The notes beneath the pieces are model-generated. The model saw only the letters and a list, made by a program, of their open reading frames with translations, made no database searches and was not told where the DNA came from. Below, in pieces: positions 1,860 through 63,662 of a stretch of 64,000 nt of DNA (the stretch's first letter is position 1; each line of letters starts with the position of its first letter). The position numbers and the translations under genes are program-made. Source of the DNA: Trebouxia sp. TZW2008 (lineage: Eukaryota > Chlorophyta > Trebouxiophyceae > Trebouxiales > Trebouxiaceae); NCBI GenBank assembly GCA_002118135.1, contig BDIU01000207.1, positions 93,443-157,442 of the forward strand, in the 5' to 3' direction.

Positions 1860-4800
1860 ATGCAGCAGCTATTCACCAGGCAAAAGTTTTGTCTATCATT
1901 CAGCGTACTTGCATGGACAGTTGCAGCACTACTGAGCCTGGGCTCAGTCACAGCAACCAACCCATTGGTGCCTGACAATGGGGCATGGATTGGAGTCAGC
2001 ATTGATTGGCAGGAATGGGCTTCTGTGAATGACTATGTGCAGCAAGCAGAATTTCAACCAACTAGCTACACCATTTTCGTCAGGTATGCTTAGTATGGCT
2101 TGACTGAATCGGATCACCTTGCTCAAATGCGCTGCATGCATTGTAAAAAGGTGTGTCAGGAAATGCCAGTACTTGGTTCAGCGAGATCAGCCTATGTACG
2201 CTGAAGTAGGGCCAAATCGCTGGGCAATCAGTAGATGGCTTCTGCTTCTGGTTGGGTGGCATGACTGAGGCTACGTATGGGTGATATTGCCTTGCTTGCT
2301 GCTCTGCAAGCACATCAGAAGTCACCTGCTGGATCATGAGCAGTTTGACCCAATTCAGCACACTTAGCCTATTGTCACTCAACGCAGTACTGGCATGTTG
2401 TCGGCACAATCTTGTTATATTGCATGCAGCATGTGAGAAATTTGCGTAGGTGAAAGATGTGCAATCACTACCTTGCTTATCCAGAAATGTACAATGAAGT
2501 GGCAACAGTTGCTGCGCAAACATGCACAATGTGCCAGCTCTTGTCTTCTTGTTTCAATCAACAGCGCTGTGAAGCACCTCTAGACCTGACTCACACCAGT
2601 TTTTGCTGCATCTGCTGTCCATTCGCTGGTCCACCTGCTGTCCAATATTTGCCATGTCTGCTATCTGGCTGCATGCCCGTCTTTGTATCCCCTTGCTCTT
2701 CATCTGTATGTCGCATACTTCCACTCACTACAGTGAATCAGCATAGGAAATACGTAATACGCAGTACGTAGTATTTGAGAGTATGGATCACTGAGATGCA
2801 GTGCAAAACGTGTAAGAAGCAATTGGTTCGGGCCAATATGTAATCCCCAATGCGCAAGTATTTTGCAGTATCAATCACTGGGGTGAAGAGTATGGTGGTC
2901 CACTGACTTGCTATATTTGCTGTTCTGCAGCGTGCCTCTGAACGCTAGCGATAAAGGACTGTTGGACAATGTGGTGCCTCAGGTCAGTCCTGCTATCACC
3001 CCAATCAGCGTTTCCTTGACTTTCTGCCATTACATGCATGCTGACTAGATTCTGAAAATCCAGTGAATGCCAGTGATACAGGACTGCTGGTCAATGTGGT
3101 GCCTCAGGTCAGTCCTGTTATACTCCCAATTAGCATTTCCTTAACTTGCTGCCATCACATGCATGCTGACTAGATTCTGAAAATCCAGCTAACCGTACAC
3201 AAAGCAATCAGCTGCCTCCAGACATGATGTCGTGGCTCTGTACAGTAGTTGCAAACTGATCAGCAGACTGCTCACTGTACAGTCACAACATTGTGTGCAG
3301 ATGATGGTGTGAGCTGTTTACGCCATCAATGCATTCCTATCTGTTGTGCAGCTTTGATTGTACATTGTGCACAAGCCCAAAGTTGCTATACAGCACCATC
3401 ATGACACAACAACTGATTTGCATGTGGGCATGTACTCAGACTGCTCTGTACACATGACTCATCAGCAACATGCGTGTACAGACACAGGCACTTCCTGTGT
3501 TATATGCATTCACTTACAACCCAGCAAAAGTATACTTTTGAAGAGACAGAGCGTGACTTTGGACTGGTGCTTAGACAGAGCAACGGAACGCTGAGGCATT
3601 TGTTGAGGGCTATCACCCTGCAAGTGTTCGACGCAGCTTGTTGCATGCAAGGCTTGCTGCTGCACAGCAACCAGGATTTGCAAAGTGGCTGTACCTGCGC
3701 AACACAGAAAGCAAGACTTGGTGCAAGAAGGAGTGGCTATCATTACATTTGTGTCATGACCAAACAGTGCAAAGAAAGGCGGCAAAACAGAAAGCACACA
3801 GAGTTTAAGCATGACCATCACATGGAAAAGGCAGCAAAAAAGTGAGATTGACAATATTTTTGCTGCAGATAGCAGCACTGGGTGGAATGGCAGTCATAGT
3901 GGCGCAACCCAGCAAGGGTTTATCCCAAATTACGACTGCCTCAGCAGAGAAGTTCGCTTCGGTCATCCAGGGTTATGAGGAGCAGGGAGCATCCATGCTG
4001 ATCGAATTTGGCCATGAAATGAATGGCAACTGGTATGCATGGGGACAGCAGCCATCAGAATATATCAAAGCCTTCCAGACTGTTTCTACTGCAATCGCCA
4101 AGGTGGGAATTGAGCCCATGACCATGCAATTTGTAGTGCATCAACTGTGTCTGCTGCCATTGCTCAAGTGAGAATTGAACCTGTGAGCATACGTTTTGTC
4201 CTGTATGTGTTTGTGCAACATCACAAAGCAAGGATGGGTGGGGTTTGATGATTGTGTGCATCGGGACACCAGGCTTCAGCGTGCATTAAAGCCTTACAGG
4301 CTGTCTCTACTGCCATCGCTAAGGTGAAATTGAACCCGTGACCCACACACTTTGTCCTGTATCTCAATGTACAACAGTAAAGCAAGCAAAGTTGGGTGGG
4401 GTGTGACAATAGTGTGCATGGGGACAGCAGCCATCAGAGAACAGCAAAGCTTTTCAGACTGTCTCTACTGCCATTGCTAAGGCGGGTCTTGAACCCATGA
4501 CCTATGCATGTTGTCGCTGCATCTCAATTTGCAATAGTACAGCAAGCAAGGTTGGGCCGGGCAGATGATGATGTGCATGGGGACAGCAGTTGTCAGAGCA
4601 TGTAAAAGCTTTTCGCACTGTCTCTACCGCCATTGCCAAGGTGGATTCTGAACTCATGACCATGCATTGTGTACTCACCAACTTGACTTCCCTAGCATCG
4701 TCAGTGAACAAAACAAGACTGCGCATGCGCTGGCAGGTTTGCTGTTGTACTTTCATGCATTGGATCGTCAACAACAGTGGTGGCTTCTGCTCATGCCTGT

Positions 4801-7800
4801 GACGCTTAGCTGGCTGCTGCGATTTGCAAGCGTTGTCAGCAAATAATACAAAACCTGTGTTTACAGGTTTGCTGTCGCACCTTCATGCTTTGGAGCGTCA
4901 ACACCAGTGGTGGCTCCTGCTCATGCCTGTGACGCTTAGCTGGCTGCTGCAATTTGCAAGCGTCGTCAGCAAATAATACAAAGATTGTGTTTGCAGGTTT
5001 GCTGTCGCACCTTCATGCTTTGGAGCGCCAACACTAGTGGTGGCTCCTGCTCATGCCTATGACGCTTAGCTGGCTGCTGCAGTCTGTTAGCATTATCAGG
5101 AAATGAAACAAAGATTGTGTTTGCAGGTTTGCTGTCGAACCTTCATGCTTTGGAGTGTCAACACTGGTGGAGGTTACCCTTATCCAAATGGCACAGACAT
5201 TGCGCAATATGTGTCGCCATCAGACTTCAAGTTGCTGGATACAAATGGCGACGGCAGCATTACTCAGACTGACGACCCATACGCGCCGTATTACCCGGTA
5301 AGTCAGCGCTTGATGCAACACCATTGCTGCCTGTTTGAGCATCTGTGTGTCAGCAAGCTGCATGCAGCCATTTGCAAACGGCACAGACATTGCACAGTAT
5401 GTGTCATCATCTGATTTCAAACTGCTGGATGCAAATAGTGACGGCAGTATTATTCAGGCTGATAATCCGTACGTGCCGTGTTACCCGGTAAGTCACTGCT
5501 TGTTGCTATTGCCGCTTCTTTTAGCACCTGTATCAGAAATGTTGTTCGCAATCAGGCTCTGTCATGTGTCTCATTCACAGGCTGAGTGATGGTCTTGACT
5601 TGCATATTTACATCACTGTGCAAGACACAACGAGTTTCTGTCTCTGCCAATGCAGCATAATTCCATGAAATGTGTGGTCTGTTCATTGAGCTGTCATTCA
5701 TGGCTGTTGTTCTGAGTGCAGACGAAGTTCCTGTACGCACCTAGCAGCTGATTAAATCTCAGCAGCAAGCATGATGGTGAGACGGGATTTGTATTTTGTG
5801 CAGGGAGACAATAGTTTTGACTGGATGGGTATGTCCCTGTACCACCTTGGAACAACATAGCCATACAGCCAAACCAAGTTTCTGCATGTACCATAGTAGA
5901 GGCATGGAACATCGCTAGCAAGCATGCAATTGTCAATAATCATGATCAGAAACAATTTGATGTTTCTGCAGGGGGATGACTACGTTGACTGGGTGGGGAT
6001 GTCCCTGTACCACTTTGGAATTTCATACCCATACAACCAGAACGTGGTGCCAGAGGCGCGCAAGTTCACCTCTACGGTATGCACTTGTTGCTTTATGCAT
6101 GCATTGACATGCTTTACCACATTGAAACCTTGTATACTTACACTCAGAAAGTGTTGCCAGAGGCGTGCAAAGTCACCTCTACAGCAAGCACTTTTTACTT
6201 TTTGACTGCAGTAGCGTACCGGAGGCGCGCAAGTTCCCGTCTACAGTAAGCACTTTTTGCTTTTTGCGTGCATTCACAGGCTGTACCATTTCAGAACAAG
6301 ACACTCATACAAACAGAACATGTTGCTAGAGGATCGGAAGCTTCACCTCAATGGTTTAGAATATTTAGTTTCAGATGTAGTTCCATGCCTGGCTGCATGC
6401 AACATAGAGCCCTGCCCTGCCCTACCCTGACGATTTTTGCCCTGCTGCGCATTGCTCTGCCCTGCCCTGCCCTGCCCTGCCTGACTAATTCTGCCCTGCC
6501 CGGCCATGCTCTGCCCTGCCCTGCCATGCTCTGCCCTGCCCTGCCCTGACTAATTCTGCCCTGCTGCACATGGCCCTGCGATCCATTGACCTGTACTGCC
6601 CTGCCTTGCCCTGCCCTGGCCCCATTGAGATCAAGGCAAGAAGCCCTGAAGGCTGATGTTCCCAGGATGCTTTCAGTGACAGCTCGTTTATCAACTTATG
6701 GAAAATGGTCAAGTTGTGTTACCTTGGATAGACTCCGCATCATGCAGGCATGACCCTGAATTTGTTCCTGCAGATTTTTGGCACTTTCAAGACCACCTAC
6801 GTGGACTATACAAGCTTGCCAAACTTCTACGAGATTTACAGCTCTCCAACTGGAACGCATAAAAAGCCTATGGCAATTCCTGAGACGGCTTCTCTGTGGG
6901 ATTTGAGCAAGATCACTGGCTCACCCACAGAACTCCAAGTTAAGAGTGGTTGGTGGGAACAGGTATGCTATAGCGCTTTCAACAACTTCTTGTTTCTACT
7001 GTCTTTGGCATTGGGCAATTGAGACCTGAGTGCTGTTGGTGTCGAGCTGAAATAGTTGCCATGTGGCAGTGACATACATTTGGCAACTCTTGAATGCGTG
7101 ACAACTCCAGAACCGCATATGTATCTCTTTGAAATTTCAGCACAACCACTGGTTCACCCACAGAATTGCAAGTTAAGAGTGGCTGGTGGGAGCAGGTAAT
7201 CATGCTTTTGGCAACTAGAGCTTTGATAATCCGGTCGTCTTGCAGCTGACTTGTCTCAATTCTGTTTGACAAATTGTGCTTCCCAATACAGCTTGATGAT
7301 GCAGACAAAAGCTTGCAAGAGGGGCTTTACCCTGTCATACAATTTCACTAGTCATACAATGCATCAGACAAAACCTCAGCACTGACTTTGATTTGCGGTC
7401 TTTTGCACTTACTCCCCCTTGGTTGTTGTTCAGCAGGTATCAGCCTGTCTGACTGTGAATCTGTGCATCCCTGAAGCATCACTCATTATCAGAATGTGTT
7501 TGCATTGCCATGAATCACTTCAGGCATTGCGCTGTTCACCACTGTTCACCACTGTTCACCACTGTTCACCATGTAATCTTGTTTTTCTCGTCATTATGCT
7601 GCTGCAGCTGTTCAACAGCTGTGGAGGTGACACAGCAAACGCCTTGAACAATTCTGTGCGCATGCCCAATCTGCCCTTAGTGGCTTGATTTGACCAAAAC
7701 AGCATGACCCAACACAAACCCGCTGCGTCATCATCATGACTCATCAGGCATCACCTGACTGACCATTATTACGCTGCTGCAGCTGTTCAATGTGGGAGGA

Positions 7801-8828
7801 GACTCAACAAACGCCTTGGACATTTCTGTGCACATGCCCAATCTGCGCTTGATTGCCTGGTTTGACCAAAAGAAGCAAGAATCATCAGCCAGCAATGACG
7901 TGATTGACTGGAGATATTCCGCAAACTCTGCCATCCATGACGCTTTTGTGGCATACACCGGCACCAAGACCAACAGCACTGGAGTCAGGTATCAATCCAC
8001 TGGCTATGGCTTCTCACACACCCTAGCTCAAGCCCTGGCTCAGGCCCTAGCTCAGGGCCTAGCCCATGACCAAGTTGTGTGTGGCTAGTGTCTTTGCTTG
8101 TGCGGTGTTGCATGTGTTTTGTCACACTAATGTTGGTCAACATGCCCAAATGTCGCGATTCGCCTGCGTGACATGTGCGCAGTCTCTCTGCAGCATTCAG
8201 CAATGGCTGCAATGCTGCAGTCGACATGACATCAAACTTTGGTGAATCTTGTCGAGGCAGCGTGCATCATTTACACACTGCATGCGCCATGTTTTCAATG
8301 CAATGATATGTCATAAGTCTGTTACCAGCACTAGAGCTGCTGCCTGTTTGCTGTGACTTGTTGCTTAGTGTGCATCAGTCGCTTTGCATGCAGGATTACA
8401 CTACCTCAGTCCATCAGTCATATTGGCAAGGTCAAAGTGACACAAGCAAGGATGATTCACTGTTGTTGACCTTGCATGCAGGTATTGGAGTACAGTACCT
8501 CAGTTCATCAGTCATATTGGCAATCAGTCATATTGGCAAGGTCAACGTGACACTAACATTCAAGCAATAGTGACTCACTGTTGTCAATTTTGCATACAGG
8601 TATTGGAACACGCTGCCACAGTTTATCAGTCATATTGGCAAGGTCACCGTGACGCAAAAGGCGAGCGACGGTTCCACAGAGACATGTCTGAGTTCAAGCA
8701 GCAGCACTGGAAACGAGACATACGCTGATCCTTTAGCCAACATTGGAGCGAGTGGGGCTGTTTCGGCAGCTGTGATGTCATTAGGAGGGCTTTTCGGCGC
8801 TGTCCTGTTGTTCATGGTGTTGCTATAG
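1860..8828 (+). CDS. GH26-type endo-mannanase/glucanase-like enzyme, secreted and probably GPI-anchored
   Basis: Predicted to hydrolyse beta-mannan or a related beta-glycan at the cell surface. I read eight exons: 1860-2083, 2931-2982, 3869-4102, 5127-5297, 5972-6076, 6774-6962, 7783-7988, 8600-8828; phases close to give 469 residues. Residues 1-32 form a hydrophobic signal peptide. Exon 3 carries the GH26 acid/base motif GHEMNGNWY (Glu about 142). Exon 6 carries IPETA, with the likely nucleophile Glu about 299. Exon 4 has an EF-hand-like DTNGDGSITQTDD loop and exon 5 a DWVGMSLYHFG strand typical of the family. The C terminus has a small-residue stretch followed by about 20 hydrophobic residues ending at the stop, as in GPI signals. 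Family assignment rests on motifs only; substrate is not certain. Introns 2-7 are filled with diverged copies of adjacent exon edges. Confidence 0.85.
2944..3188 (+). repeat. Two-copy tandem duplication of GH26 exon 2 and its downstream intron edge
   Basis: The segment from mid exon 2 through the first ~80 nt of the intron (about 2944-3062) is repeated at about 3063-3188. The second copy keeps the sense GLLVNVVPQ and the donor CAGGTCAGTCC, but lacks an acceptor at the matching place, so it should be intronic. It shows the 3'-copy-downstream polarity seen elsewhere in the window. Confidence 0.8.
4115..4662 (+). repeat. Array of four degraded copies of the GH26 acid/base exon 3' edge
   Basis: Copies at about 4117-4175, 4254-4343, 4410-4501 and 4568-4662 repeat the end of exon 3 (TGGGGACAGCAGCCATCAGA to CCATTGCTAAGG, then intronic GAACCCATGACC). 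Each keeps a donor-like AAGGTG/AAGGCG. Frames are interrupted, so they read as pseudoexons within intron 3. Confidence 0.85.
4731..5060 (+). repeat. Three upstream copies of the GH26 exon 4 acceptor edge
   Basis: Units near 4731-4800, 4864-4930 and 4996-5060 repeat the TTTGCAG acceptor and the first ~40 nt of exon 4 (GTTTGCTGTCGCACCTTCAT). They are spaced about 130 bp apart and are followed by a shared GCTCATGCCTGTGACGCTTA tail. The intact exon begins at 5127. Any transcript using an upstream acceptor would quickly meet a stop. Confidence 0.85.
5362..5492 (+). repeat. Downstream copy of the GH26 exon 4 3' half
   Basis: This repeats about 130 nt of exon 4 (NGTDIAQYVS to DNPYVPCYP) with the donor CCGGTAAGTCA. 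It is the longest, best-preserved echo in the gene and stays open in frame. It lacks an obvious AG acceptor at the copy start, so I call it a pseudoexon; use as an alternative exon is possible. Confidence 0.8.
5800..6350 (+). repeat. Echoes flanking GH26 exon 5
   Basis: One upstream copy (about 5800-5880) has a TGTGCAG acceptor and the DWMGMSLYHLG sequence, then a TAG stop. Three downstream copies (about 6146-6192, 6214-6247, 6317-6350) repeat the exon 3' end (AGAGGCGCGCAAGTTCACCT) with donor-like ends. The real exon is 5972-6076. Confidence 0.8.
6412..6625. repeat. CCCTG pentanucleotide array in GH26 intron 5
   Basis: Imperfect repeats of CCCTG (reading CTGCCCTGCC), broken by short unique inserts, run for roughly 200 bp in the intron between exons 5 and 6. 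The long frames seen across it on both strands are by-products of the repeat. Confidence 0.85.
7138..8560 (+). repeat. Echoes of GH26 exons 6, 7 and 8
   Basis: About 7138-7198 repeats the 3' end of exon 6 (TTCACCCACAGAATTGCAAG, then GGAGCAG|GTAA). About 7606-7700 is an upstream copy of the exon 7 acceptor edge ending at a TGA. About 8389-8443 and 8477-8560 are upstream copies of the exon 8 acceptor edge (CAGTCATATTGGCAAGGTCA), the second with an internal 18-bp duplication. Bases 7528-7571 also hold four copies of a CTGTTCACCA 10-mer. Confidence 0.8.
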
Positions 8829-9300
8829 AAAGAAAATTGGACGCAAAAGTATATTTTGTTGGGCGTGATAACAGGAGCGTCTGTGTATAGAAAGAGCCCA
8901 GCTCTGGGGATGTTGCTATAGGATACGTGCACAACATGCAGTCCTTGCATGAAGGCAGGGTTTTTGCATCTGTTACTTGAACGCATGGGTGATGCTAAGA
9001 TGATGCTTTTTTTGGCTTCCACTTTTGCATGGCTACCATGCTGCACATTTTGTTGTGAGAGGCAGACAGGAAGAGTATCTGAACCAACTTTGAAGTACTT
9101 CATCGTATCACTACCATTGTTGCTGCAGCACATGTGAAATGGTTCAATGGCAAGAAAAGCTCGAGAATGTAGCATTGAGCGCGTTCAACATCTGAGCTAC
9201 ATCTGTCCACCTATGTTGCTAGTGGGCTCATTTCCAGCGATGGTTGTTATGTGACATCACCTATCATGAGCTAGCTGTATAGACAGAGGCTCCCATCAAG
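8829..9300. other. 3' flank of the GH26 gene
   Basis: No gene is seen. The stretch should hold the 3' UTR and polyadenylation site of the GH26 gene. I found no TGTAA motif, the usual green-algal poly(A) signal, within 300 nt of the stop. Confidence 0.4.
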
Positions 9301-9303
9301 ATG

Positions 9304-9335: not shown

Positions 9336-9349
9336 GTGACTCAGCTTTC

Positions 9350-9815
9350 CAGCCATACACACGAGCCTTGCTATGTCACCAGCGTGCTATGCCTGTCAGC
9401 ACTCACCCCAACAGCATGCTATGCATGGACCATGATATCAATTGTGCTCAGAAGAACTGTGCCAAACGAAACAATGCAGCAGAACTGCTGTCAGCTCTTC
9501 ATATGGCTGAAGACATGTGCATATGGCTGATGCACACGTGCTAAGTCTGCCATGTGCATGCATGCACATGAACCTTGCTATGCCACTCACATGCACATGC
9601 TATGCTTGCCAGCAATCACCCCAAAAGCATGCTATGCAATGATTGCGTTTTCAGGCATGCTCAGAAGAGCTGTGTAGAAGAAGTTGATGCAGACGGGCCC
9701 GCTGTCAGCTGTTCTATCATGCAGACAAGCCTTTGCTATGCAAACAGCGTGCTATGCTTGCCAGCACTCACCACCACCATCCCCCCCCCTCCCCCCCCCC
9801 CCCCCCCCCCCCCCC

Positions 9816-9851
<36 letters not shown>

Positions 9852-11880: not shown

Positions 11881-13240
11881 TGCACAGATAGCGTCAGACC
11901 GTAGCACAGGGCGACCGTATGCCGAGCTGCTGCATGCGTATGCATTATTAAGGCAGCAGACCCTGGAGCAGCTAGCAGTAGGTCAGCATGCCCATACAGC
12001 CTGGAGCCACGCCTGCAGCGAAAGGGAAAGGCCTGCAGCATTGCACACACGCGGGCCAGATGGATTCCAGCAACAAAAACAGGAAACGCTTCCAAATGTG
12101 CTCAGACACTACAGCACTCAAGGCCGGGCGATCACTCAGCCGAGTATTAGTTGAGCCCAACCCAGTTTGACGTCCCTGATCGGACGAGAAGGGGTCTAGT
12201 CTGGATGGTATGGCCGTAGCATGCCCTTGACCCAAAATTACAAGTTAGATGTCGTGCAGAGCACTGATGGTGCACCTTACAGTGTTGGCTGGCAGCTGGG
12301 CTGACGCCAGGTGGTGGGCCTGAGCTTTGGCTGCACTTAGGTGATTGTTGGCCTCACTTACTCAATGTACTGTACCTGACAGTTCAAGCTCAGGTTTGAC
12401 ATGACTGTTATATCAAGATCGATGCAACAGACTCGCTGACAGGTGTTCAGTCATGCACATGAGCCATGCTCTCCAGACAGCAATGCATATGCTGTGCCTG
12501 CTCAAGCCTTGAATCTCTTCTGGCGGTCCTGGAACGCACCCCCAGAAGCCGTCATGAGTCGAGGCAGAGCAAAGTGCAACAGGGCAGGGCACTTGGAAAC
12601 ATGGTCGGGCAGTTTAAAACAGGGCAGGGCAGATTGCAAGAGGGGAGGGCTATTTGGATGTCGGCACAACAACAAGCTCAAGGAAGTGCCACCTAAACTG
12701 ACAGCAGCTGAATTTACTCATGTGACACCAATCTGAAACATGCTACCACCAGCCATGACTACTGAAGCGTCTGCATTGCTGGGCTGCAGATTGTTGCTGT
12801 CAAAAGGCTGCTCACAAACAGCAGGCTTTGCTGGCGTGTTGGCTTCAGCAGATGTGAAACTGGGAATGATCTCAAGCCGCCCATTTGCCCAGCATGTGGA
12901 GGCCAGATGGTAAGCACAGGCAGGAGAGATTTCATGTGATATGCGCACTTCCTTGGGCACACTGCATAGCATAGCAAATAGGTTTTCAAACAAGTCATTC
13001 AAGGCAATTTCATGCAAACCTTCCCAGCCTCAGCAGGCTTCCAGGTCAATTGCCCGTATCACATGCAAGTCAAGTGCATGTGTCATCATTTCATGCACAA
13101 ATGTCAAGGTGAGAGTAATGCCATTGAGACGCAGCAGCTGTGTGCACGCTCCAATCATGCACATTGACAGCATGCAGTCAGAGTGTTGTATCACACACTA
13201 CAATGCAGCAACCGAATCTGGCATGAGTACTGGCTCTGAG
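11881..13240. other. Gene-free stretch with minor repeats
   Basis: No frame has recognisable protein sense or good splice sites. Bases 12560-12660 carry three to four imperfect copies of an ACAGGGCAGGGC-containing unit of about 28 bp. The remainder appears unique. Confidence 0.5.
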
Positions 13241-13880
13241 CATGCAGCACACTCAAAGCGTGCGCGCTCAAAGCATGCACTCAGGGTGGGCACACTCTAC
13301 GCATGTGCACTCACAGCATGCGCGCTCAAGTTATGTGTGCTCAAAGCATGCAGCACATCCAACGCATGCACAATCAAAGCATGCAGACCTCAAGCATGCA
13401 CGCTCAAAGCATGCCCACGCAAAGCATGTGCCTTCAAAGCATGCACTCAAAGCACACACATTCAACTCCATGCAGCACATTTGCAGCGTACTCAGACCAT
13501 GCAGCATATCTGCAGCATGCCTTCTCATAGCCTGCAGACTCAAAGCATATGCACATTTGCAGCATGGTCACTCAAAGCATGCAGACTCAAAGCACGTGCA
13601 CTCAAAGCGTGCAGACTCAAAGCATACATCCAGCGCATGCACTCACAGGATGCACGCGTTACATGCACTCTCAAAGCATATGACCTCAACACCCGGCAGC
13701 ACAATCAAATCATGCACGTCCAAAGCATGCAGCGCCATGCACAGGAGTCTAGACTAGATCTAACCTGTATCCAAATTGCACATCAGCAAAGACGTCAACC
13801 TTTGAACTCAAAGCAGGCACTCTCAAAGCATGCACTGAAAGCATGCAGCCTACTTAAGACATGCAGCCTACTCACACACG
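13241..13880. repeat. Minisatellite built on CTCAAAGCATGCA (~13 bp)
   Basis: Dozens of imperfect copies of a 13-nt unit (ACTCAAAGCATGC / GACTCAAAGCATGC) run for about 640 bp. The 13-nt period is not a multiple of three. The long frames on both strands (SKHA.., ACSTQS.., CFECACFERA..) are therefore repeat artefacts. Each unit contains the GCATGC palindrome abundant in this window. Confidence 0.9.
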
Positions 13881-14310
13881 CACACTCAAGGCATGCCTGA
13901 TTTTCTGACACGTGTCCAGGCTGCACATCAGCAAAGACCTCCACCCCTGAACTAGCTGGTGTCATTTCATCAGTGGATGGATTACAGTCCCATGGCATGC
14001 AGACTCACAGCATGCGCATTCGAAGCATGCAGCACATGCGAGAAAAGTGCCATGCATGGGAGTCTGACCTGTGTCCAGGCTTCAAATCAGCAAACACTTG
14101 CAAACCTCAAGTGGTGTGTTTCACCATCAATGGGTTCACTGCAGCCTCATAGCATGCAGACTCACAGCAGGCGCACGCAAAGCGTGCAGCACATGCGAGA
14201 CGAGTGTCATGCATGGGAGTCTGACCTGTGGCCAGGCTGCACGTCAGTGAACACTTCAACCTCTGAACTAGCTGGTGTCATTTCATCAGTGGGTGGATTG
14301 CAAACGAGGT
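13752..14310. repeat. ~160-bp higher-order tandem repeat, about 3.5 copies
   Basis: Each unit has ordered blocks: GAGTCTGACCTGTGTCCAGG, CTGCACATCAGCAAA, ACCTCTGAACTAGCTGGTGT, CATTTCATCAGTGGATGG, then a run of GCATGCAGACTCACAGCATG and CAGCACATGCGAGA. Units begin near 13752 (partial), 13905, 14060 and 14222. It abuts the 13-bp minisatellite and seems to incorporate pieces of it. Confidence 0.8.
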
Positions 14311-19390: not shown

Positions 19391-22300
19391 TCAAGAGCTG
19401 GCTGCACACACTGCTGGGGCATATCTAGGCATTGGAATATGAGCAGTCTTGGGGTCTGCTGCAAACGACCATGCTATTCCCCAGCGACTTGTACGGCCCT
19501 GCACATCATCACTCATTCATTCGTCAATTCAATGAATGCGCTTGCTAGGCAGGCTTTGGAATCCAGCGGGCAGGTATGTACAGACTCAGTGAGCTGCCTC
19601 CATGCAAGTCTGTCAGAAGCTATTTTGAGCCAACCAAAGTGGGGATGAAATCTCGGGCACGAGAATGTCTGCAGACATTAACCCATGCTGGAGTGATGCA
19701 TATGAAAGTGATCGGAGTAGCGTTTGCAATTTGAATTAGCGTCTGCAGCTGTCGCTGTTGCTGAAGCTGCTGCGTCTGTGCTGTCAAAATGCCGGCCGCG
19801 AGTGCAAATGCAAGGCATACAGATGCTTGTAGACCCTAAACTACCCAAATGTCTGGCACGTCGTGCGCATCACTTGTATGCTCTTACAGTCCTGCCAATT
19901 GCAGACAGCACATCATCAGCATCACTTGCGTGTTTGCACAAGCCTGCAAGTTGCCTGGAGCACGACATCAGCTTTGTCTGCTAGCTTTGCATGCTTCCAT
20001 GATCCCGCTTGTTGCATGCTGCCCATCATCAGCATCACTTGCAAGCTGCGCATTATCAGCACCAGTTGTATGCTTTCAGGAATCCTGCTCATTGCATGCA
20101 GCACATCATCAGCATCACTTGCATGCTTTCATGAGCTTGCTTGCTGCATGCAGCGCAATACCAGCAATGCATCAAGCCAGCTCATGTGAGCATGCGAGAA
20201 ATATTGACGACGTGCTGTGTGCAATGGAAAGGGTCACGAAAGAATGCAAGTGATGCACAGCACATCCGCAGTACCACTTGCATGCTTTTGGGACCTCGCT
20301 ACAGTGATTTCTCAATGTAAGGACACTTGATATAATGGCATTCTCAATGTAAGGACAACGCAACTGGCAATCAAGCCCTGCATTCTGACTACACTGGGTA
20401 CGGTCAATTCAATGTAAGGACAGTTTTCTTGGTGTCCAATGCAGTCATCATACCGAGAGATTACTGGACTTGTACCTACACTTACCTGGACAAACTCAGC
20501 GCTGTGACCTTGCTATCATGCAGCTGCTGCTGCAATTGCTGTAGAGTGGCCTGTTTGCCCACTTGTGTTGCAACATGTTGTTGTGGTGCTAGTGACCAGC
20601 ATGCTCAAGCACCTGGACAATTTCAGTGATTCTCAGAGCTGTGACCTTGCTTCATGCAGCAACAGCAGGCGCTTTTTCTTCAGAGTGGACTTTCTATCTT
20701 GCATGCTGATGTGATGCTACTCGTAAAAGTGATGTCTCACCTGAACAAATTCAGTGGTACTCAGAGCTGTGACATTGCTGTTATGCAACAGCAGCCGTAT
20801 TTGCTTCAGAATGGCCTTCCTGCCTTGCATGCTGGTGTGATGCTACTCATAGGAGTGATCTCTCACCTGGACAAACTCAGTGGTTCTCAGCGCTGTGACC
20901 TTGCTGTTATGCAACAGCAGCCGGATTTGCTTCAGAGTGGCCTTCTTGCCAAGCATTGAGGTGTACCAATGCACTTGCCCTTTCAACTTGATGCTGTCCT
21001 GCACCATCTGGGTGACAAAGGCCAGCTCGCCTCCTGGACACACCATTTCCTCTGGAGTGCCTGCAAAAGCAGCCAAATATAATCTTTAGGGTAGGAGTTC
21101 TGGGGTTTTTGGAGCGTTTTGAGCCTTTTTTGATTCAGTATTGTAGATGCACCAGTGCACTTGTCCTTGCAACTGAATGCGGTCCTGCACTATTGAGTGA
21201 CAAAGGCCAGCTCGCCTCCGGGACACACCATTTCGTCTGGAGTGCCTGCAAAAGTACCCAAAAAGAGTTCTTGAGGCAGCAGTTCTGAGAGTTTGGAATG
21301 CTTTGAGCGTGTTGGGATCCCGGATTATTGGATGGTGGAACTCTAGTGCACTGGTGCTTGCAAATTGATGCTGTCCTGCACCATCTGAGTGACAAAGGCC
21401 AGCACACCTCCTGGACAAACCATTTCCTCTGGACCGCCTGCAGAAGCAGGCAAAAAGTCTTATTTGGGCAGCAGGTTTGAGAGTTTCAAATGCTTTGAGC
21501 GTGTTGGGATCCCAGATGATTGGTTAGTGGATCTCTAGTGCACTGGTGCTTGCAAATTGATCCTGTCCTGCATCATCTGAGTGACAAAGGCCAGCTTGCC
21601 GCCTGGACATACCATTTCCTCCGGAGTGCCTACAGAAGCAGTCAAAAAGAGTTATTGTGTCAGGAATTTGGGCGATCTGGAATGGCTTGAGCAATTTTGG
21701 ATCCTAAAATGGAGATATATCAATGCACACGCCCTTGCAAATTGATGCTGTCCTGCACCATCTGAGTGACAAAGGCCAGCTCGCAACCTGAACATACCAC
21801 TTCCTCTGCAGTGCCTACAGTAGCAGTAGACAGGTCGTACAAAACAATAGGAGGGTTGCTTTCTGCATTTAGTTTTCTGGGCTTTTTCGCAGCTGGTAGC
21901 AATGACAATCTTGCCTTCAAAGGCTGTGTGAGATGTCCATCCAGCTTTCTGTAATGTCTGGAAGCAGAAAGGGGTTCAACTTTGAAAACAATAATAATAA
22001 TGCCACTGTTTGACGATTTCAATCACAATAAGTGATCAACAATGATGGCTTAATGTGATTGATGTGACACTGATGGTTCTACCTGCATAGGTCGTGTGTG
22101 GGTTTCAGCTTCTTGTAGGTCTGGAATCTGTAGGGACTGAAAGGAGGGAGGGTTGCTCATGGAAAAATCAAAATTCTCAAACCCTCATGCACGGCTGGTA
22201 GCAGTGATGGATTTACCTCCATAGGCTGTGTGTGGGTTTCGACCAGCTTCCTGTAGGGTCTGAAGGGAGGGTTGCACATGGAGAAAGCGAAAGTCACATT

Positions 22301-24179
22301 TCACCGCATATCTGATAGCAATGACAATGTTACCTCAGTGAGCTGTGTGTGGGTTCCTTCCAGCTTCCTGTAGGGTCTGAAAGAAGGGAGGATTGCACAT
22401 GGAGAAAGCAAAAGTCTCGTTTCACCGCATATCCGATAGCATTGACAGTGTTACCTCCGTAAGCTGTGTGTGGGTTCCGGCCAGCTTCCTGTAGGGTCTG
22501 AAAGAAGGGAGGGTTGCACATGCAGAAGGCAAAGCTCTCCCCGTCATGCACAGCCGGCAACAAGATACCCTGCAATGCATGAAAACATGATGTTATACAT
22601 TAAATTAATATGCAATGCCTTGACAATCAAGCGTTATGACTGTTGAGGGTTGCACGTGGAGAAGGCAAATCTCTTGCCCTCATGTGCAGCGGACAACAAG
22701 ATAGCCTGCATACATGCATTTACTCACTTTTCGCATTGCACAACAAGCAGATTTACACATATGTGCAAGAGGTCATGATGGTAATGTTTGATGCCTTGGT
22801 GTGAAGCCATTACCCGTCAGCATATTGTGGCGAGCTAGTAGCAAGAAGACGCCCTGCCATGCGTGCAGACATGCTAACATTTGTTGGAGTCATGTACAAT
22901 TATCGGATGTTGAGTGTTGTGATGGCCGCTGTCCTGCAAAGCACAGCCGGCAACATGACGCTCTATATACATGCATGTCTGATATACAATAGGGAACAGA
23001 AAGGAAGCTTTTTGCCAGCAGGCATCATGACAGGAGCTTTTATGGATTGAAGCAGCCCAGCAAGTGTGCTGAAGTTGATTGACTGACCTGATTCAAATTT
23101 GCAGAATCCATTGGCTGACTGCTTTGACCTGTTCTTCTGATCTCAATAAGATGCTGAAGGTGGGCATTTGCCTGCACGTTCTTCTTCGCCCACTCACACG
23201 CAATGTCTGTAATGTCTGTGCCCACAAAGCGCCAACCATTGAGTGCTGCTCCAAGAAGGGGATATATGCAGTTTGCGCCACAGCCAATGTCCAAGCCTCT
23301 TATGGTTTCAGAGCCGCAGTCATCGGCCGGGCCGGGTATGGTGTCAGAGCCACAGCCAGTGTCCAAGCTTGTTATGGGTTTGGAGCCATCAGGGGAAGAC
23401 AGCTGCAGCAAGTCTTCGAGCCAGTGAATGTAGTTGCTTCTGTTGGCAATAGGAGGCACCAGTTGGCGGTCAGGGACATCCCATGTGATGTTGAAGTCGT
23501 GCTTGAGCAGGGCTTTTGTGAGCGCCTTGCACGCTGCCAGCGATCTGAAGTCAATGTTGGCAAGGCCTTGCGTATTGATCTTGATGTGCTGTGACAGTTC
23601 CGGAAAGGTGTTGCTGAGCGCCTTGAAGTCTGGTTGCTGATCAGCGTACTTGTTGCGTGGATGGATTGCAGGCTTGTGTCTGTCAGTGTTCTGGTGTGAT
23701 GGTGTTGCATGAGCTTGTGTGACATGTACAGGCTGCAATTGAGGGCCTATCTGGCCTGAGCTGTTTGCATGTGCTGCATGTCTGATGCGTTTTGCTGATT
23801 GCAAGTCTGAGGAGTCCTGCCTGTGCCTTTTATTTGGGCTACTTGCTTGGGCTGTGGCGTCGTTGCTGCTGCTGTGATCAGTGGCGTCATTGGGTGACAA
23901 GGCTTGACTGTTGTTGCTCAGCTGTTTCTGCTCTTGTAGGAGCTGCAGAGCGGCTTGTGTTGCGGACACTGCTTGGGTCAACTCAGCATAGACCTGAGTG
24001 TGCACAACTCATCAAAGCGCAGACGGGACTAGGCGCTGCGGCGGGCAAAACGCATGCTGCAGGCAAACCTCGCTGGTCTCGTTTGTGCTATGCTCAGTCT
24101 GAAGGAGTTCAAGCTCAGCAAGGCTTTCTTGATATGTTTGCAAGGCTGCCTGCAGCTCCTCGACGGAAACCTCTTCCAT
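19391..24179 (-). CDS. METTL16: METTL16/FIO1-type RNA N6-adenosine methyltransferase
   Basis: The METTL16/FIO1 family transfers methyl from S-adenosylmethionine to A43 of U6 snRNA and some mRNAs in the nucleus, affecting splicing. Five exons on the minus strand: 24179-24069, 23993-23088, 22569-22455, 21060-20867, 19498-19391; phases close to 477 residues. Family signatures: HPRNKY and a DFRSLAACKALTKALL helix (about 148-200), LVPPIANRSNYIHWLEDLL (about 215-233), SAM motif I GLDIGCGANCIYP (about 270), catalytic NPPF at 358-361, GGELAFV..WYTSMLGKK in exon 4, and SRWGIAWSF in exon 5. Residues 1-65 resemble the N-terminal helices of splicing factor SPF30/SMNDC1, an unusual extension. A Ser/Asn-rich linker follows. 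The introns around exons 3 and 4 hold large echo arrays, and the last intron holds a MITE and a minisatellite. The C-terminal end after SRWGIAWSF is short; a further exon is possible. Confidence 0.9.
19850..20165. repeat. Minisatellite in the last METTL16 intron
   Basis: Imperfect copies of a ~60-bp unit containing GCACATCATCAGCATCACTT and GCATGCTTTCATGAGC repeat four to five times. The frames across it on either strand come from the repeat. Confidence 0.8.
20302..20466. mobile_element. Mariner-like MITE 1 (165 bp) in METTL16 intron
   Basis: It begins CAGTGATTTCTCAATGTAAG after a TA and ends CGAGAGATTACTG, so the ends are inverted repeats (CAGTRATYTCTC). The right flank is GA rather than TA, probably mutated. 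Internal blocks TCAATGTAAGGACA and CTGCATTCTGACTACACTGG are shared with the element at 29969-30376. There is no transposase frame; it is a non-autonomous element. Confidence 0.7.
20488..20830 (-). repeat. Three downstream copies of the METTL16 exon 4 3' edge
   Basis: Copies at about 20730-20820, 20625-20720 and 20488-20575 repeat the end of exon 4 (sense KQIRLLLHNS..TALSTTEFVQ) and its GTGAG/GTAAG donor. They lie on the 3' side of the intact exon (21060-20867), are progressively shorter and more diverged, and would add frames with stops if spliced in. Confidence 0.85.
21080..21820 (-). repeat. Four upstream copies of the METTL16 exon 4 acceptor edge
   Basis: About 190-bp units (near 21724-21815, 21530-21635, 21341-21441 and 21147-21250) each carry an acceptor-like AG and the 5' part of exon 4 (sense GT/GGPEEMVCPGGELAFVTQMVQDSI), then an intron-like tail with TGGGATCC. 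Several still match GGELAFVTQ at protein level; frames are broken soon after. The intact copy is the most 3' one. Confidence 0.85.
21900..22710 (-). repeat. Array of NPPF-exon copies in METTL16
   Basis: Besides the intact exon 3 (22569-22455) there are copies at about 22640-22705, 22336-22440, 22216-22315, 22085-22200 and a tail-only copy at about 21905-21975, period about 120 bp. The 22336-22440 copy keeps MCNPPFFQTLQEAGRNPHTA but has stops before and after. The 22216-22315 copy lost 4 nt after NPPF. The 22085-22200 copy reads NPPSF with an insertion. Each downstream copy retains a GTAA donor. Confidence 0.9.
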
Positions 24180-24491
24180 CTTCACGTTTTCAGCTCCTCA
24201 CTCAAGTGGCCGTGTGATCGATTTGCGCTCTATCTCTGCTTGAACGGGAAACAAGCTTGAAGACCAAACGTCGTGCGACTTCCAATTGCACCTGCTTGCA
24301 GCTTGTGGCACGCAAGTGCATTTGTGGCAGTAGCTTCACGCTCAACTCAAAAGAATGGTCCGTACGTGGGCGCGACATGCAGCATCAATCTGTCCTACAA
24401 TCTCGCCACTCGCAAATTGATCACTGGGACAGATGCTTTGATCTTGCCCACACAACAGTGCTTCCAACTGTGTTGTTGACGTGACCTGAGG
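24180..24491. promoter_or_regulatory. Divergent intergenic region, METTL16 (-) / membrane protein (+)
   Basis: The two start codons are 312 bp apart and point away from each other, so this segment must carry both promoters and 5' UTRs. I see no TATA box or other recognisable element. Confidence 0.5.
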
Positions 24492-25854: not shown

Positions 25855-28800
25855 TTAGCTGGCGTCCTGAGAAATCAGGCATGCAATGTTGTTGACAGCA
25901 ACAGACTGGGGCACAAACAAGTTCGATGTAGCGCTAGTTCCAGAACATTCGACCACAAAGCCCAGTTTTGTTTCCGCTCCTGGTGCAAGAGCTTGCCAGC
26001 TTTCTATTGCAGAGCCTGAGATAGTGTGATTGCTCCAAGCAGGACGCCAGCACCAAGTTTGTGCTAGACCAATATACTGGCTACTCTGTACAGATAGCTG
26101 CCATGGCACTTGTATTGTATTTTGCCCTGTAAAGCAGGCAGCATGACTCACTTTCTGAAAAGAAAGGAAAAGTCGTTGCCGTCAGGCGTTGACACGGCAG
26201 CTTCTGTCAGAAAACTTGTTGTTTTGAGTCCACGCTTTTATACAGTATTTATGCACCAATGATTTGAGTAACAAGTCACATATGATGCATACTGAATGTA
26301 GAGCATTGGGCTATGCAGTGTCCTTCCAACAAGCTTTCTTACATTGCTGCCATCGATTTTCGACTGGCGATGGCAGAGATACAGCAAATCGCATCCTGAC
26401 ACAGTCCGAGCGCTTTGCATTTTGCTTGCAGGGCAAGTAAGGCTCATGATCCTGTGACTTGCATGCAGTACTGTGCAATGATTAAGACTGCATGCGCCAG
26501 ACAGGTCGACAATATGGAAACGTAATGAGCACTGAATCAACAGTTCAGTCAACATGATGCCGAGGCTACAGCATGTGCCACAGAGCTTTGTCACATCCTC
26601 ATACCTCTGTTTACTATGGTGATGTTCACATCACACTGCCACCGCCCAAATGCAGCTTCCCATGGCTGACCAGTCTTGACCACAGCTTGAACACCACCGT
26701 TACCAGCACTGCCACCGCTGGCTTGGCCCTGCCATTGCTGTGTACCTCCAACATTTGCATTGGGGGCAGGATAGTTCCAAGTTTTCTGTTGTCCAGCTGG
26801 CGGCTGCAACAAGTTTGGCTGCTGCTGTAGTTGCTGCTGCTGCTGCAGTTGCTGCTGTTGATGGGGTGCACCACTAGGATTGGTAACAGCATCAGTGTGT
26901 TCTAGAAACCATGGCTCGAGCCCACAACTAATGAGAAACTCAATTTTGTGCCAGTGAATAGAAACCCAGTCATTGGCCACAATGCCACCTGCATGTTTTT
27001 CCACATCAGACAGCTGATTGATGTGTGACCTTTGATGCTTTCTTGACAGCCTCAAGGATCCGAGAGACTGCCCTTGGTAGCCAAAGGAGGAGCACAGCAG
27101 CCAAAACAAGCAGCATCAGCATACAATTTGTGTCAGACCTTGTCAAGACTGGGAATCACATAAGCTGTGATGAATAACACATTGAGCAAGGGCTGGATGT
27201 ACACAACAAGCGCTCATCAGCAAAATCCTCTTCGTTGACACTGTAGCTGAGCAAGGCACAATCACCCTAACACAGTCATGTTAGCTGAACAATGTATCCT
27301 TCTTGAAGCACACAGTTGCAGCAGACTGAAATGATAGAAGCTGCCGTTCTATTCGTGTTGAATGGCCCTGAGCAAACGTGGCCTACCTGTATCGCCGCTG
27401 TTGGCATTCCAGCACCAATAGAACCAGTGAGGTATTGCTTGGTGATGTCCATCTGCACCAGGACCCGTGTTCTCTGCGCACACCACATACACTGTCAAGT
27501 CGCGGCTGCTGTACTGGTGGTGTCAGATTGGTTTTGCAGTAGTGTTAGAACCAGTGAGGTATTGCTTGGTGCTGTCCATCTGCCCCTGGACCTTGGTTCT
27601 CTGCACACACAGTCAGAACATCAGTCACAGCTTGATGCAATTTGCCCATCTGTCTCTTCCTCTGTGCGTACATCACTCACAACCAGGGTAGAACAAGAAC
27701 ACAGGTCACTGCTGTAACACAGACTGTTCTGTGTTGGCATTCCAGCACCAATAGAGCCCTGAGGTATTGCTTGGTGCTGTCCATCTGATCCTTACTATCT
27801 GCAACCATTATACACAAACAGGACAGATTGAAGACATAGGTCACTGCTAGGTACACAGTGAAACGGCTTTACAGCACCAGTAGAGCTAGTGAGATATTGC
27901 TCGGTGCTGTCCATCTGCCCCTGCACATCCACAGACAATGTCAAACACCTTGAACCTGGTGCTTTGCACACTATCAGCACAGCATCACAGCTGTACATAG
28001 CACTGGCTTTTTTGAGTGCTTTTAGAGCAAATGAGATATTGCTTGGTGCTGTCCATCTGCACCAGGACCCTGGTTCTCTGCGCACACCACAAGCCATGCT
28101 AGGTAGACACTGTGCTGTGGCGGCTGTCAAGTGCCAGTTGAATACCACGTGGTAGCCAGCTTTGACTTGTTGGCATATGTCAGTCAAGCATTACGCTGTC
28201 ACACTTCAGTGTATGGACAAAGAAGCAAGCTGCTAGGTTCTGAATTCGATAACGGCATGTATGCAGGAGAGCAACTACCTGAGTAAGTGCTGTCACACTT
28301 CAGTACATTGACCAAGAAGCAAGCTGTCAGGTTCTGGATTTGATAGTGGCATGTATGCAGGAGAACATCTACCTAAGTAAGATGATAAGTCCTGCATGGC
28401 TTGTATGTCTTGTGGCTCTTCAAACTTTGAGCCAAATTCTCCGACTGCCACAGGAAAACTGATCTGCACCAAGCATGAATTGCAAAGTCAACATTGCAGA
28501 TCGCAGCCTTCAGCACAAGAGGAGGGATTTGGACCACCTGCATGCTGACTGGCAAAATCACACTTAGCACTTCATGACAAGTGACTGGGATGCTTTTCAC
28601 ATTGACTGGCAATGCCACACTCAGCACATCATGAAAGATGACTGGGGTGCTTTTCATGTTGACTGTCAATGCCACACTCAGCACTTCATGACAAATGTTA
28701 CAGCAGTGTGCTGCTGGTTGCTTGTTGTAATGATCAGCAACATTCTCTCCACGGTTGTCACAGATCAACAGCGCATAAACAGGAAGCTTGCGTACGAGCA

Positions 28801-62045: not shown

Positions 62046-63662
62046 ATGCAGACCACTTGCATGCAGTCAACCATTGCCGGTACTGGACAGAACTTGGTCT
62101 CTTCGTCTAGGATCACCGCACACCCCGGCCGATTCTTGCCATGCAGAGCGAACGCTTGCCGCGCACGCAACAGCTCTCGCAGAAACGTACACGTATGTGC
62201 GCAGCAGCAGCAGCAGCAAGAAAAGCCTCAAGTAGCCAAGTTTGCTGACAGCGTCGGCTTGCCCACCGACGAGGGTCTGTTTGGCTTCAAGCCTTTTCCT
62301 GAGGTCAGTCACTCACCAGACGCTTGGAGTGCACAGCGGACTGTGGACGTCATCTTCGCAAGCATCGATGTCCAAGGCCATGCCTTATGATCAGCTTGTG
62401 ATGCAGGTCTGGGTGGGGCGTTTGGCCATGATGGGTTTCTTGACAAGTATCATTGAGGAGGCCATCACTAAGAAAGGAACCCTCGGACAAGTTGGCTTCA
62501 TCACACCTTCACCACCACTGTTTTACACCATTGTTGGCGCCGCTACAGCTGCCACCATTTCAGCCACAGCTGTGACACTTTCAAATGCTGCCACTGGCAA
62601 GATGACTGCCAGGCAAGTTGCAAAGCCAGTAGCATACTACTGCTATTGTGTTCTTTATGTGGCTTGGTCACAGCAAATGTAGACTAAGTTCATTGCTCGG
62701 GGCACTTGAGGCAGGTGCTGATGCAAGGAACAGAGCTGTTGTCATCAGCAGGGTTGACCGTTGCATCAGCTCCTACCTTAGTATGCCCTGAGCAATCCTG
62801 CAAAGCTGGAGTCTGCTGTCGTACAATTTCAGTCACTTCTTTCACCAAAACATGTACAACTGCGTCTGCTTGACTTTCCTATGGATTGACTTTGCAACAA
62901 AAGCCATCAACATTCTGCGCTTGTGTGCAGGGATGCTCAGAGGTACAGGGGCTTCTTGGGTATCAAGGACGAGAGCGAAAACATTGCTGCCTCAGAGAAG
63001 ACTATGAAGGGTCAGGGCGACCCAGTCTCTCGCGCTATTGGTCCAGACAATTTGGAAGATGTTGAGGCAGCAAGGAAAAACATTCCAGCTGACAAGTAAG
63101 CTCACTTTGCTGTTGGTTTTGCTTTTTCTGCCCAAAGGGTTTGCTCCTGTTGCCATGTGTTGCATCTTGCGTGGCTGCAAGTACTCACATGTCAATTTTA
63201 TGTTCGGCATAGCTCGCTTGCTTTTGGCCTTCTTGCTGCAGCATCCTATTTGCTGTGCCAACCCCCTGGCAATGCAAGCCTGTTTCAGCAGCTCATGTTC
63301 TTACATAAGCATAATCAGCAGCATCACTGCTGACAAAATAGCTATGTGTGCAGGCTGTTGAAAGTTGATGCCAGGCCGGAATCTAAGGCTCAGCACAGCA
63401 ATGGAAAGACAAGGAGACAAATTGCGTCAACAGGCATGGCTGAAAATACCACTGCTGAATCATTCAACCGTGTTTGCAGGCTGTTGAACTTTGATGCCAG
63501 GCCAGAACCACAAGGCTCAGCACAGCAATGGAAAGAAAAGGAGCCCAACCAGTTCAAGAGGGACAACATTCAGCAACAGGGCATGCCAGGACCAAATATG
63601 TCTCTTGCATACAGAGACGATGAGATTGAGCGACAGAACTTTGCCAATGAGCCAACTCTCAA
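62046..63662 (+). CDS. LHC-like one-helix plastid protein with long hydrophilic tail (3' end open)
   Basis: A relative of ELIP/SEP/HLIP stress proteins that bind chlorophyll or carotenoid in thylakoids. Exons: 62046-62303, 62407-62612, 62931-63095, 63480-63662, continuing toward or past the right edge. Residues 1-50 form a transit-peptide-like N terminus, followed by QQQQQQ. The LHC signature ExxxGRxAM straddles the first splice site (E86, G90, R91, A93, M94), followed by MGFLTSIIEEAITKKGTLGQ. A second hydrophobic stretch (LFYTIVGAATAATISATAVT) follows. The soluble tail (RYRGFLGIKDESEN, LLNFDARPEPQGSAQQW, MPGPNMSLAYRDDEIER) is much longer than in typical one-helix proteins. Intron 2 has a GC donor (CCAG|GCAAGT). 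A terminal exon at about 63853 is possible but unproven. PsbS-like or SEP-like assignment is open. Confidence 0.75.
63353..63425 (+). repeat. Upstream copy of LHC-like exon 4 acceptor edge
   Basis: It repeats GTGCAG|GCTGTTGAAAGTTGATGC through CAGCACAGCAATGGAAAG. Relative to the intact exon starting at 63480 it has lost one nucleotide (CCGGAATCTAAGG versus CCAGAACCACAAGG), so splicing to it would shift the frame. This marks it as a pseudoexon. Confidence 0.85.

What the first reader, a model, noticed from the sequence alone, without database searches (positions are those of the whole stretch)
1860..63662. Polarised exon-edge echoes: window-wide intron growth by duplication of intron-exon boundaries
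In six long-intron genes (GH26, METTL16, GH5, dynamin-like, J-protein, WD40) and in the LHC-like gene, introns contain diverged tandem copies of neighbouring exon edges. Copies upstream of an exon carry its acceptor and 5' part; copies downstream carry its 3' part and donor. I counted more than 40 such copies and saw no clear exception to the polarity. Genes with only short introns (SPT4, F-box, membrane protein, LQY1-like) and short introns of the other genes have none. This suggests introns lengthen by repeated tandem duplication spanning a splice site, with the outermost functional site retained, leaving arrays of decoy sites.
Basis: seen in the sequence. Interest (0 to 1): 0.9.

Follow-up and report, generated by a model that had tools for sequence, protein, structure and literature searches.

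The report
Introns lengthened by copied exon edges
In a Trebouxia-like green alga, many of the introns examined are stuffed with decayed tandem copies of the edges of neighbouring exons, splice sites included, and splicing skips the copies; this shows one way introns grow and suggests that splice sites are found across the exon.

Summary
Confirmed and extended. The window comes from a Trebouxia-like green alga (68.5 Mb). Local direct repeats vastly outnumber distant or inverted ones. In three genes whose exons are fixed by outside evidence (GH26, METTL16, GH5), 35 intronic copies of exon edges were found; all 26 that include a splice site follow the claimed polarity (upstream copies carry the acceptor, downstream copies the donor). 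An ab initio test on 17 other stretches of the genome repeats this (22 polar of 64 duplication clusters, 10.1 expected). A contig of at most 2 kb encodes METTL16 with the copies spliced out. Copies look mostly neutral, yet their splice dinucleotides are usually intact. Best explanation: short DNA tandem duplications; those spanning one splice site are tolerated because the exon-proximal site is used, as cross-exon recognition predicts. Polarity then follows by logic. Limits: duplications also lie away from exon edges, some long introns have none, ab initio models often mistake copies for exons, no sister-species DNA or RNA reads were available, and exon definition is inferred. Boundary-crossing tandem duplication is known from a potato gene; serial use across a genome sample, with intact silent decoys, was not found in my literature searches and looks like a new variant.

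The parts
1860..8829 (+). GH26 gene, 8 verified exons: 1860-2083, 2931-2982, 3869-4102, 5127-5297, 5972-6076, 6774-6962, 7783-7988, 8600-8829
   Evidence: Spliced protein 78% identical to Trebouxia lynnae P0001 with no gap over 2 residues
3064..3188 (+). GH26 downstream copy of exon 2 3' part plus donor
   Evidence: 88% identity, offset 125
4254..4683 (+). GH26: three downstream copies of exon 3 3' part plus donor (4254-4363, 4412-4523, 4574-4683)
4733..5043 (+). GH26: three upstream copies of the exon 4 acceptor and 5' part, period 130
5375..5531 (+). GH26: downstream copy of exon 4 3' part plus donor (open frame, but absent from the two Trebouxia homologues compared)
5817..5871 (+). GH26: upstream copy of exon 5 5' part (AG still present just before it)
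6112..6355 (+). GH26: three downstream copies of exon 5 3' part and donor region
7124..7198 (+). GH26: downstream copy of exon 6 3' part, donor GT kept
7593..7699 (+). GH26: upstream copy of exon 7 acceptor and 5' part
8383..8523 (+). GH26: two upstream copies of exon 8 acceptor and 5' part
19394..24185 (-). METTL16 gene; exons include 23088-23993, 22455-22569, 20867-21060 and a last one near 19394-19504; first exon near 24069-24185
   Evidence: Spliced model identical to P0121, encoded on a contig of at most 2001 bp
21897..22418 (-). METTL16: four downstream copies of exon 22455-22569 3' part and donor
22645..22719 (-). METTL16: upstream copy of the acceptor side of exon 22455-22569
21137..21826 (-). 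METTL16: four upstream copies of the acceptor and 5' part of exon 20867-21060, period about 190
20495..20838 (-). METTL16: three downstream copies of the 3' part of exon 20867-21060, two reaching past the donor
26585..31279 (-). GH5 gene; exons 30752-31279, 30507-30640, 29737-29915, 29222-29392, 28373-28463, 27387-27473, 26585-26988 (outer ends approximate)
   Evidence: Spliced frame aligns with bacterial homologues P0242, P0248 at 58-60% without gaps over 2 residues
29487..29606 (-). GH5: upstream copy of the acceptor side of exon 29222-29392
28877..29146 (-). GH5: two downstream copies of the 3' part of exon 29222-29392
27546..28091 (-). GH5: four upstream copies of exon 27387-27473, two with the acceptor, two covering most of the exon without either site
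28195..28381 (-). GH5: tandem duplication across the donor of exon 28373-28463 (9 nt of exon)

Best explanation
Shown: this genome accumulates short local DNA tandem duplications (smallest offset per cluster 57-233 nt in the verified genes), often repeated at the same place, inside genes and, by ab initio models, between them. Where a unit spans one splice site, the extra copy ends up inside the intron with that splice site and part of the exon; the protein is unchanged because splicing uses the copy joined to the rest of the exon. Each event lengthens the intron; repeated events give arrays whose exonic parts decay while the real exon stays constrained. Polarity follows by logic, since only the copy contiguous with the rest of the exon can serve. 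Inferred: such insertions are harmless because splicing here recognises exons (acceptor and donor closest across the exon), so decoys lying farther away across the exon lose although their motifs are intact. Inferred: the duplications arise from repair of staggered breaks or similar end joining.
For: Local direct repeats far exceed distant and inverted ones in the window and in 14 of 18 other stretches. Verified genes: 26 of 26 splice-site-bearing copies polar. Ab initio test: 36 polar, 7 anti, 8 mixed, 47 none of 98 clusters in 229.6 kb, null 14.9 polar (0 of 400 shifts reach it); in the 17 stretches outside the window 22 polar of 64, null 10.1 (0 of 1000). METTL16 protein P0121 sits on a contig of at most 2001 bp while its exons span about 4.8 kb here, so it is spliced, and it lacks the copies. 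GH26 and GH5 match the six homologues compared with no gap over 5 residues. Mismatch to the exon is 0.11, 0.105, 0.252 at codon positions 1-3, and 12 of 35 copies have a stop or frameshift: constrained exon, essentially neutral copy. Duplication coverage is 0.05 in introns of 250-400 nt, 0.14 at 400-700 and 0.25 above 700. 17 of 20 verified exons are 52-234 nt and the median of 17 introns is 697 nt; in human minigenes with 365-nt introns the donor nearest across the exon wins over an identical one (PMC9225289, passages).
Against: 15 of 17 clusters in verified genes touch an exon where random placement predicts 27-55%, so plain random duplication plus selection may be incomplete. 847-, 591- and 398-nt introns have no detectable copy. 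Introns under 250 nt also show coverage of 0.18-0.23 in the pooled models, which the size argument does not predict unless they are model errors. Detectable duplications cover only 0.158 of ab initio introns and 0.095 of intergenic sequence. Spliced-contig evidence exists for one gene only. Exon definition was not tested in this alga, and the cited minigenes tested donors. 12 of 31 copies do not beat all random stretches beyond the splice motif.
Confidence: 0.75

Rival explanations
1. The duplication process is aimed at exon-intron boundaries (for example breaks tied to transcription, R-loops or nucleosomes), not random in position.
For: 15 of 17 clusters in verified genes touch an exon; 27-55% expected under four random-placement settings (P 3e-7 to 0.004). 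Ab initio models: 51 of 98 clusters touch an edge, null mean 35, maximum 45 in 400 shifts.
Against: Duplications also occur between genes and inside introns. Ancestral introns may have been shorter than the collapsed ones I used, which alone would push duplications to the edges; exon parts stay detectable longer than intron parts. Coverage does not fall with distance from the edge.
Confidence: 0.2
2. The decoy sites are kept by selection and used in nested, inside-out splicing, the innermost donor-acceptor pair being removed first.
For: In verified genes AG is kept in 15 of 15 acceptor copies and GT or GC in 16 of 16 donor copies (GT 13 of 16), against 0.776 and 0.725 for codon-position 1-2 dinucleotides and 0.44-0.54 for intron dinucleotides. 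In ab initio polar cases 31 of 37 and 31 of 33, copies under 55% identity dropped. Decoys score at least as high as the used site in 9 of 16 and 9 of 18.
Against: Copies in one array are not independent, so the excess is weak; GT alone is hardly above the control; another alignment setting gave 17 of 18 donors; ab initio cases may confuse copy and exon. No splicing intermediates were seen.
Confidence: 0.1
3. The copies are real alternative or constitutive exons.
For: 23 of 35 copies have an open frame; the ab initio model called several of them exons.
Against: Absent from P0121 (METTL16), P0001 and P0002 (GH26), P0241, P0242, P0248 and P0256 (GH5); 9 of 35 have stops and 5 frameshifts; no copy carries both an acceptor and a donor.
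Confidence: 0.05
4. Mobile elements (introners), retrocopies of exons, or an assembly artefact.
For: Introners were found mainly in fast-evolving lineages such as green algae (PMC9860276, passage).
Against: One METTL16 and one GH26 stretch were found only at their own locus, in searches that can miss common repeats; copies contain intron DNA and differ from the exon by 7-28%.
Confidence: 0.02

Closest known systems
Intron gain by tandem duplication crossing an intron-exon boundary (potato RdRp gene, Ma et al. 2016, PMC4974935; passages read)
   Same: A tandem duplication spans intron 3' end and exon 5' part; acceptor and flanks are inherited.
   Different: There one event made a new intron through a cryptic donor; here existing introns are lengthened, at both ends, many times per gene and across the genome sample.
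Rogers 1989 / Hellsten 2011 AGGT duplication model; Gao and Lynch 2009 internal gene duplication (known here only as cited in PMC4974935 and PMC3488318)
   Same: Tandem duplication inside genes feeding intron evolution.
   Different: The AGGT model duplicates exon sequence to create an intron; here the unit spans an existing splice site.
Cross-exon versus cross-intron proximity rule for competing splice sites (Reed and Maniatis as cited in PMC9225289; passages read)
   Same: Competing near-identical splice sites at one exon; the exon-proximal one wins when introns are long.
   Different: Shown for human 5' splice sites and minigenes; in this alga it is inferred from genome structure and one spliced contig.
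Small tandem duplications from end joining at breaks with 3' overhangs (PMC8355091, passages read)
   Same: Local tandem duplication without repeats at the ends.
   Different: The paper speaks of insertions under 100 bp; smallest offsets here are 57-233 nt and recur at one place. The link is an inference.

Membership tests
Tandem duplication spanning an intron-exon boundary | Copy contains contiguous intron and exon sequence across a splice site | tested here: met
   26 of 35 copies in verified genes; intron flank beats all random stretches in 19 of 31
Tandem duplication spanning an intron-exon boundary | Local direct, not dispersed or inverted | tested here: met
   93 near direct, 2 far direct, 5 inverted; one METTL16 stretch found only at its own locus
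AGGT intron-creation model | New intron created with both splice sites from duplicated exon AGGT | tested here: not met
   Copies lie inside an intron bounded by the verified exon sites; each carries at most one splice-site type
Tandem exon duplication | Copy contains the whole exon with both sites | tested here: not met
   0 of 35 copies; absence alone is not significant, P 0.24
Introner | Same element in introns of many unrelated genes | tested here: not met
   Tested for one GH26 and one METTL16 stretch only: own locus hit alone
Exon definition | Exon-proximal site used over near-identical intron-proximal decoys | tested here: inconclusive
   Final structures agree in three genes; the pathway was not observed

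The most novel reading that the evidence does not exclude
The decoy splice sites are not silent relics but are selectively kept and used: long introns are removed in nested steps from the innermost decoy pair outward, so the arrays are a built-in staged splicing device.
Probability: 0.1. Interest if true: 0.88.

Novelty: new variant of a known kind. Interest (0 to 1): 0.62.

Why it matters
How introns lengthen is usually credited to mobile elements or left open (my recollection). Here it can be read off the sequence copy by copy. The genome has in effect run the duplicated-splice-site experiment many times in vivo, with near-identical competing sites, so it offers a natural test of whether a unicellular alga finds splice sites across exons or introns, and of how decoys are ignored. 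It also warns that gene finders will call the copies as exons in such genomes, as mine did.

Tried and rejected
Introners or other dispersed elements: one METTL16 stretch and one GH26 stretch match only their own locus. Whole-exon duplication: no copy with both sites, but too few cases to be significant. Copies as functional exons: contradicted by P0121 and the homologues. Selection destroying decoys: not seen, decoys are mostly intact. Selection keeping decoys: only a weak excess over codon 1-2 dinucleotides, arrays not independent, so left as a low-probability rival. Acyl-CoA oxidase in L006 and UMP synthase in L009 agree with the polarity by comparison with solved structures. GH26 paralogues for dating: the family search of the genome found no match, not even the known gene, presumably because its exons are too short, so nothing follows. 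A kinase family search gave 134 matches whose DNA could not be cut out; not used. A first ab initio model merged genes and was replaced. Match-level count before clustering: 58 polar, 14 anti, 18 with an edge in both copies, 141 none of 231.

Literature: 9 searches; the rows listed (at most 15 per search, of up to 829 papers in the larger ones; all 4 and all 5) show no paper on serial exon-edge copies in introns. The Poquita-Du 2024 Trebouxia paper has no occurrence of 'intron' or 'tandem' in its main text; the A48 paper has 'intron' only in a reference title and no 'tandem'. Passages of PMC8724738 and PMC6110457 were seen and not used.

The ab initio anti-polar clusters (10 of 98 with 15-nt tolerance, 7 of 98 strict; 12 different ones) were read by eye, not blind: in all 12 the model had taken a copy as exon or run an exon across copies, and the copy with continuing frame fitted the polarity. 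The polar clusters (44 with tolerance) and the 12 mixed ones were not re-read to the same standard, except those in the verified genes. L003 (AT-rich, many inverted repeats) and L001 were left out of all ab initio counts; 231 of 233 matches were kept, low-complexity ones dropped.
Full report
What the window is. The window is G000:C199:93443-157442 in a 68.5-Mb assembly of 527 contigs. Among named proteins, GH26 and METTL16 spliced from it match Trebouxia best (P0001 Trebouxia lynnae 78%; P0122 and P0124 Trebouxia sp.). Published Trebouxia genomes have 63-74 Mb and about 50% GC (PMC11523091, passages), as here.

The observation. Self-comparison of the 64 kb finds 93 local direct matches against 2 distant direct and 5 inverted ones. 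Of 18 other stretches from the genome, 14 have more local direct matches than distant and inverted ones together; L014 has none, L016 one inverted only, L011 one of each, and L003 is AT-rich and full of inverted repeats, so it was left out. I fixed exon borders in three genes with outside evidence. METTL16 is identical over the whole 405-residue draft to P0121, a protein on a contig of at most 2001 bp, whereas its exons span about 4.8 kb in the window, so that contig must be spliced (the source label 'lgn' is not explained by the tool, and I do not rely on it). GH26 aligns to two Trebouxia proteins, and GH5 to one Trebouxia and three bacterial proteins, without gaps longer than 5 residues. Against these exons there are 35 copies in introns; 26 include the splice site and all 26 follow the polarity; 9 are exonic only (corrected). 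With a 15-nt tolerance three matches are flagged as wrong-way, because the copy comes within 8-12 nt of the far edge of a short exon; none includes that site. The plainest case is the 1394-nt METTL16 intron 21061-22454, 89% of which is covered by local duplications: four copies of the upstream exon's donor side followed by four copies of the downstream exon's acceptor side.

I trained a simple gene finder on the sequence alone (donor CAG|GTRAGT, acceptor TGCAG|G) and classed duplication clusters against its exons. Of 98 clusters in 229.6 kb, 36 were polar, 7 anti, 8 mixed and 47 touched no edge; shifting the clusters along each sequence gave 14.9 polar and 12.9 anti on average, and no shift of 400 reached 36. 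In the 17 stretches outside the window alone: 22 polar, 6 anti, 3 mixed, 33 none; null 10.1 polar, 0 of 1000. With 15-nt tolerance: 44 polar, 10 anti, 12 mixed, 32 none of 98. I read all 12 clusters called anti under either rule; in each the model had taken a copy for the exon or run an exon across copies. This reading was not blind, and the polar and mixed clusters outside the verified genes were not re-read. For UMP synthase (L009) a solved structure of that enzyme matches the downstream copy, as the polarity predicts. For acyl-CoA oxidase (L006) the solved enzyme continues in the downstream copy, and the residues after the upstream copy's first seven match nothing in the best hit.

What the copies are. 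Copies contain intron sequence next to the splice site: over 60 nt beyond the motif the median identity is 0.65 against 0.27 for random intron stretches, and 19 of 31 beat all 40 random ones. That makes them DNA duplications, not spliced retrocopies. Mismatch between copy and exon is 0.11, 0.105 and 0.252 at codon positions 1, 2, 3; 9 of 35 copies have a stop and 5 a frameshift, 23 are open. This is roughly what a constrained exon and a neutral copy would give; the ratio of about 2.3 is slightly above the 2 expected at most, so some early constraint on copies is not excluded.

Why polarity is expected. After a tandem duplication of a unit spanning an acceptor, only the downstream copy is joined to the rest of the exon; for a donor, only the upstream one. 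If the protein is to stay the same, the other copy must be spliced out, and it lies inside the intron. So polarity supports tandem duplication but is not a further discovery. What is not forced is the abundance and the concentration at exon edges: 15 of 17 clusters inside the verified genes touch an exon, where random placement predicts 27-43% with present introns and 37-55% with duplications collapsed, the upper figures giving edge copies a twofold detection advantage. Shorter ancestral introns could close this gap; targeting of the process is the rival.

The decoys. In verified genes AG is intact in 15 of 15 acceptor copies and GT or GC in 16 of 16 donor copies (GT in 13), whereas codon-position 1-2 dinucleotides in the same copies are intact in 0.776 and 0.725 and intron dinucleotides in 0.44 and 0.54. 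An earlier alignment setting gave 16 of 16 and 17 of 18, with one copy unaligned. Among other genes by ab initio models 31 of 37 and 31 of 33 are intact, after dropping copies under 55% identity and possibly inflated by copy-exon confusion. Motif scores of decoys reach those of the used site in 9 of 16 and 9 of 18. So decoys are not being destroyed. Human minigene work shows that with introns of 365 nt the donor nearest across the exon wins over an identical one, and the same paper cites the opposite rule for intron definition (PMC9225289, passages). The 17 introns of the verified genes have a median of 697 nt and 17 of 20 exons are 52-234 nt. Exon definition therefore explains how the copies stay silent; it is inferred, not shown.

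Intron length. Duplication coverage is 0.05 in introns of 250-400 nt, 0.14 at 400-700 and 0.25 above 700; 15 of 23 introns of 700-1200 nt overlap one against 10.7 expected by shifting, and 8 of 64 of 250-400 nt against 11.9. That fits duplications adding length. Against it, introns under 250 nt show 0.18-0.23, which I ascribe, without proof, to models that split copies into exons. Verified introns of 847, 591 and 398 nt show none. Coverage is 0.095 in predicted intergenic sequence, 0.136 in predicted exons and 0.158 in predicted introns, so the process is not confined to introns.

Known and new. Boundary-crossing tandem duplication is reported for one potato gene (PMC4974935, passages), and internal gene duplication is a recognised intron source as cited there. 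The rows listed by my nine searches hold no report of serial, both-sided exon-edge copies lengthening introns, and the two Trebouxia genome papers that I searched do not discuss introns in their main text. Subscription papers are mostly missing from the library, so this is not proof. I rate it a new variant of a known kind.

Noticed in passing
window 23277-23388 (-): METTL16 exon holds an in-frame tandem duplication of a 36-nt unit, giving 24 residues that are present in P0121 but absent from P0122 and P0123: the same kind of duplication inside an exon.
   Followed up: partly
L013 1-10000 (-): Gene for a DNA polymerase theta-like helicase, an end-joining enzyme, that itself carries exon-edge copies.
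   Followed up: partly
window 26585-31279 (-): GH5 cellulase whose nearest relatives outside Trebouxia in the listed hits are bacterial, several from chlamydial families, at 52-60% identity; if it was transferred, its introns and their copies came later.
   Followed up: no
L003 1-10000: 41.5% GC with many distant and inverted repeats, unlike the rest; perhaps organelle or another source.
   Followed up: no
window 40504-41332 (+): Array of a 113-nt unit, copies up to 95% alike, inside the predicted dynamin-like gene, with older diverged copies beside it; no exon edge recognised.
   Followed up: no
window 13233-14302: Degenerate 15-nt minisatellite and a 159-nt repeat next to it; also a run of C at 9781-9849.
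   Followed up: no
all ab initio introns: About 7-13% GC donors and an acceptor signal TGCAG|G with little pyrimidine tract; model-based, not checked with RNA.
   Followed up: no
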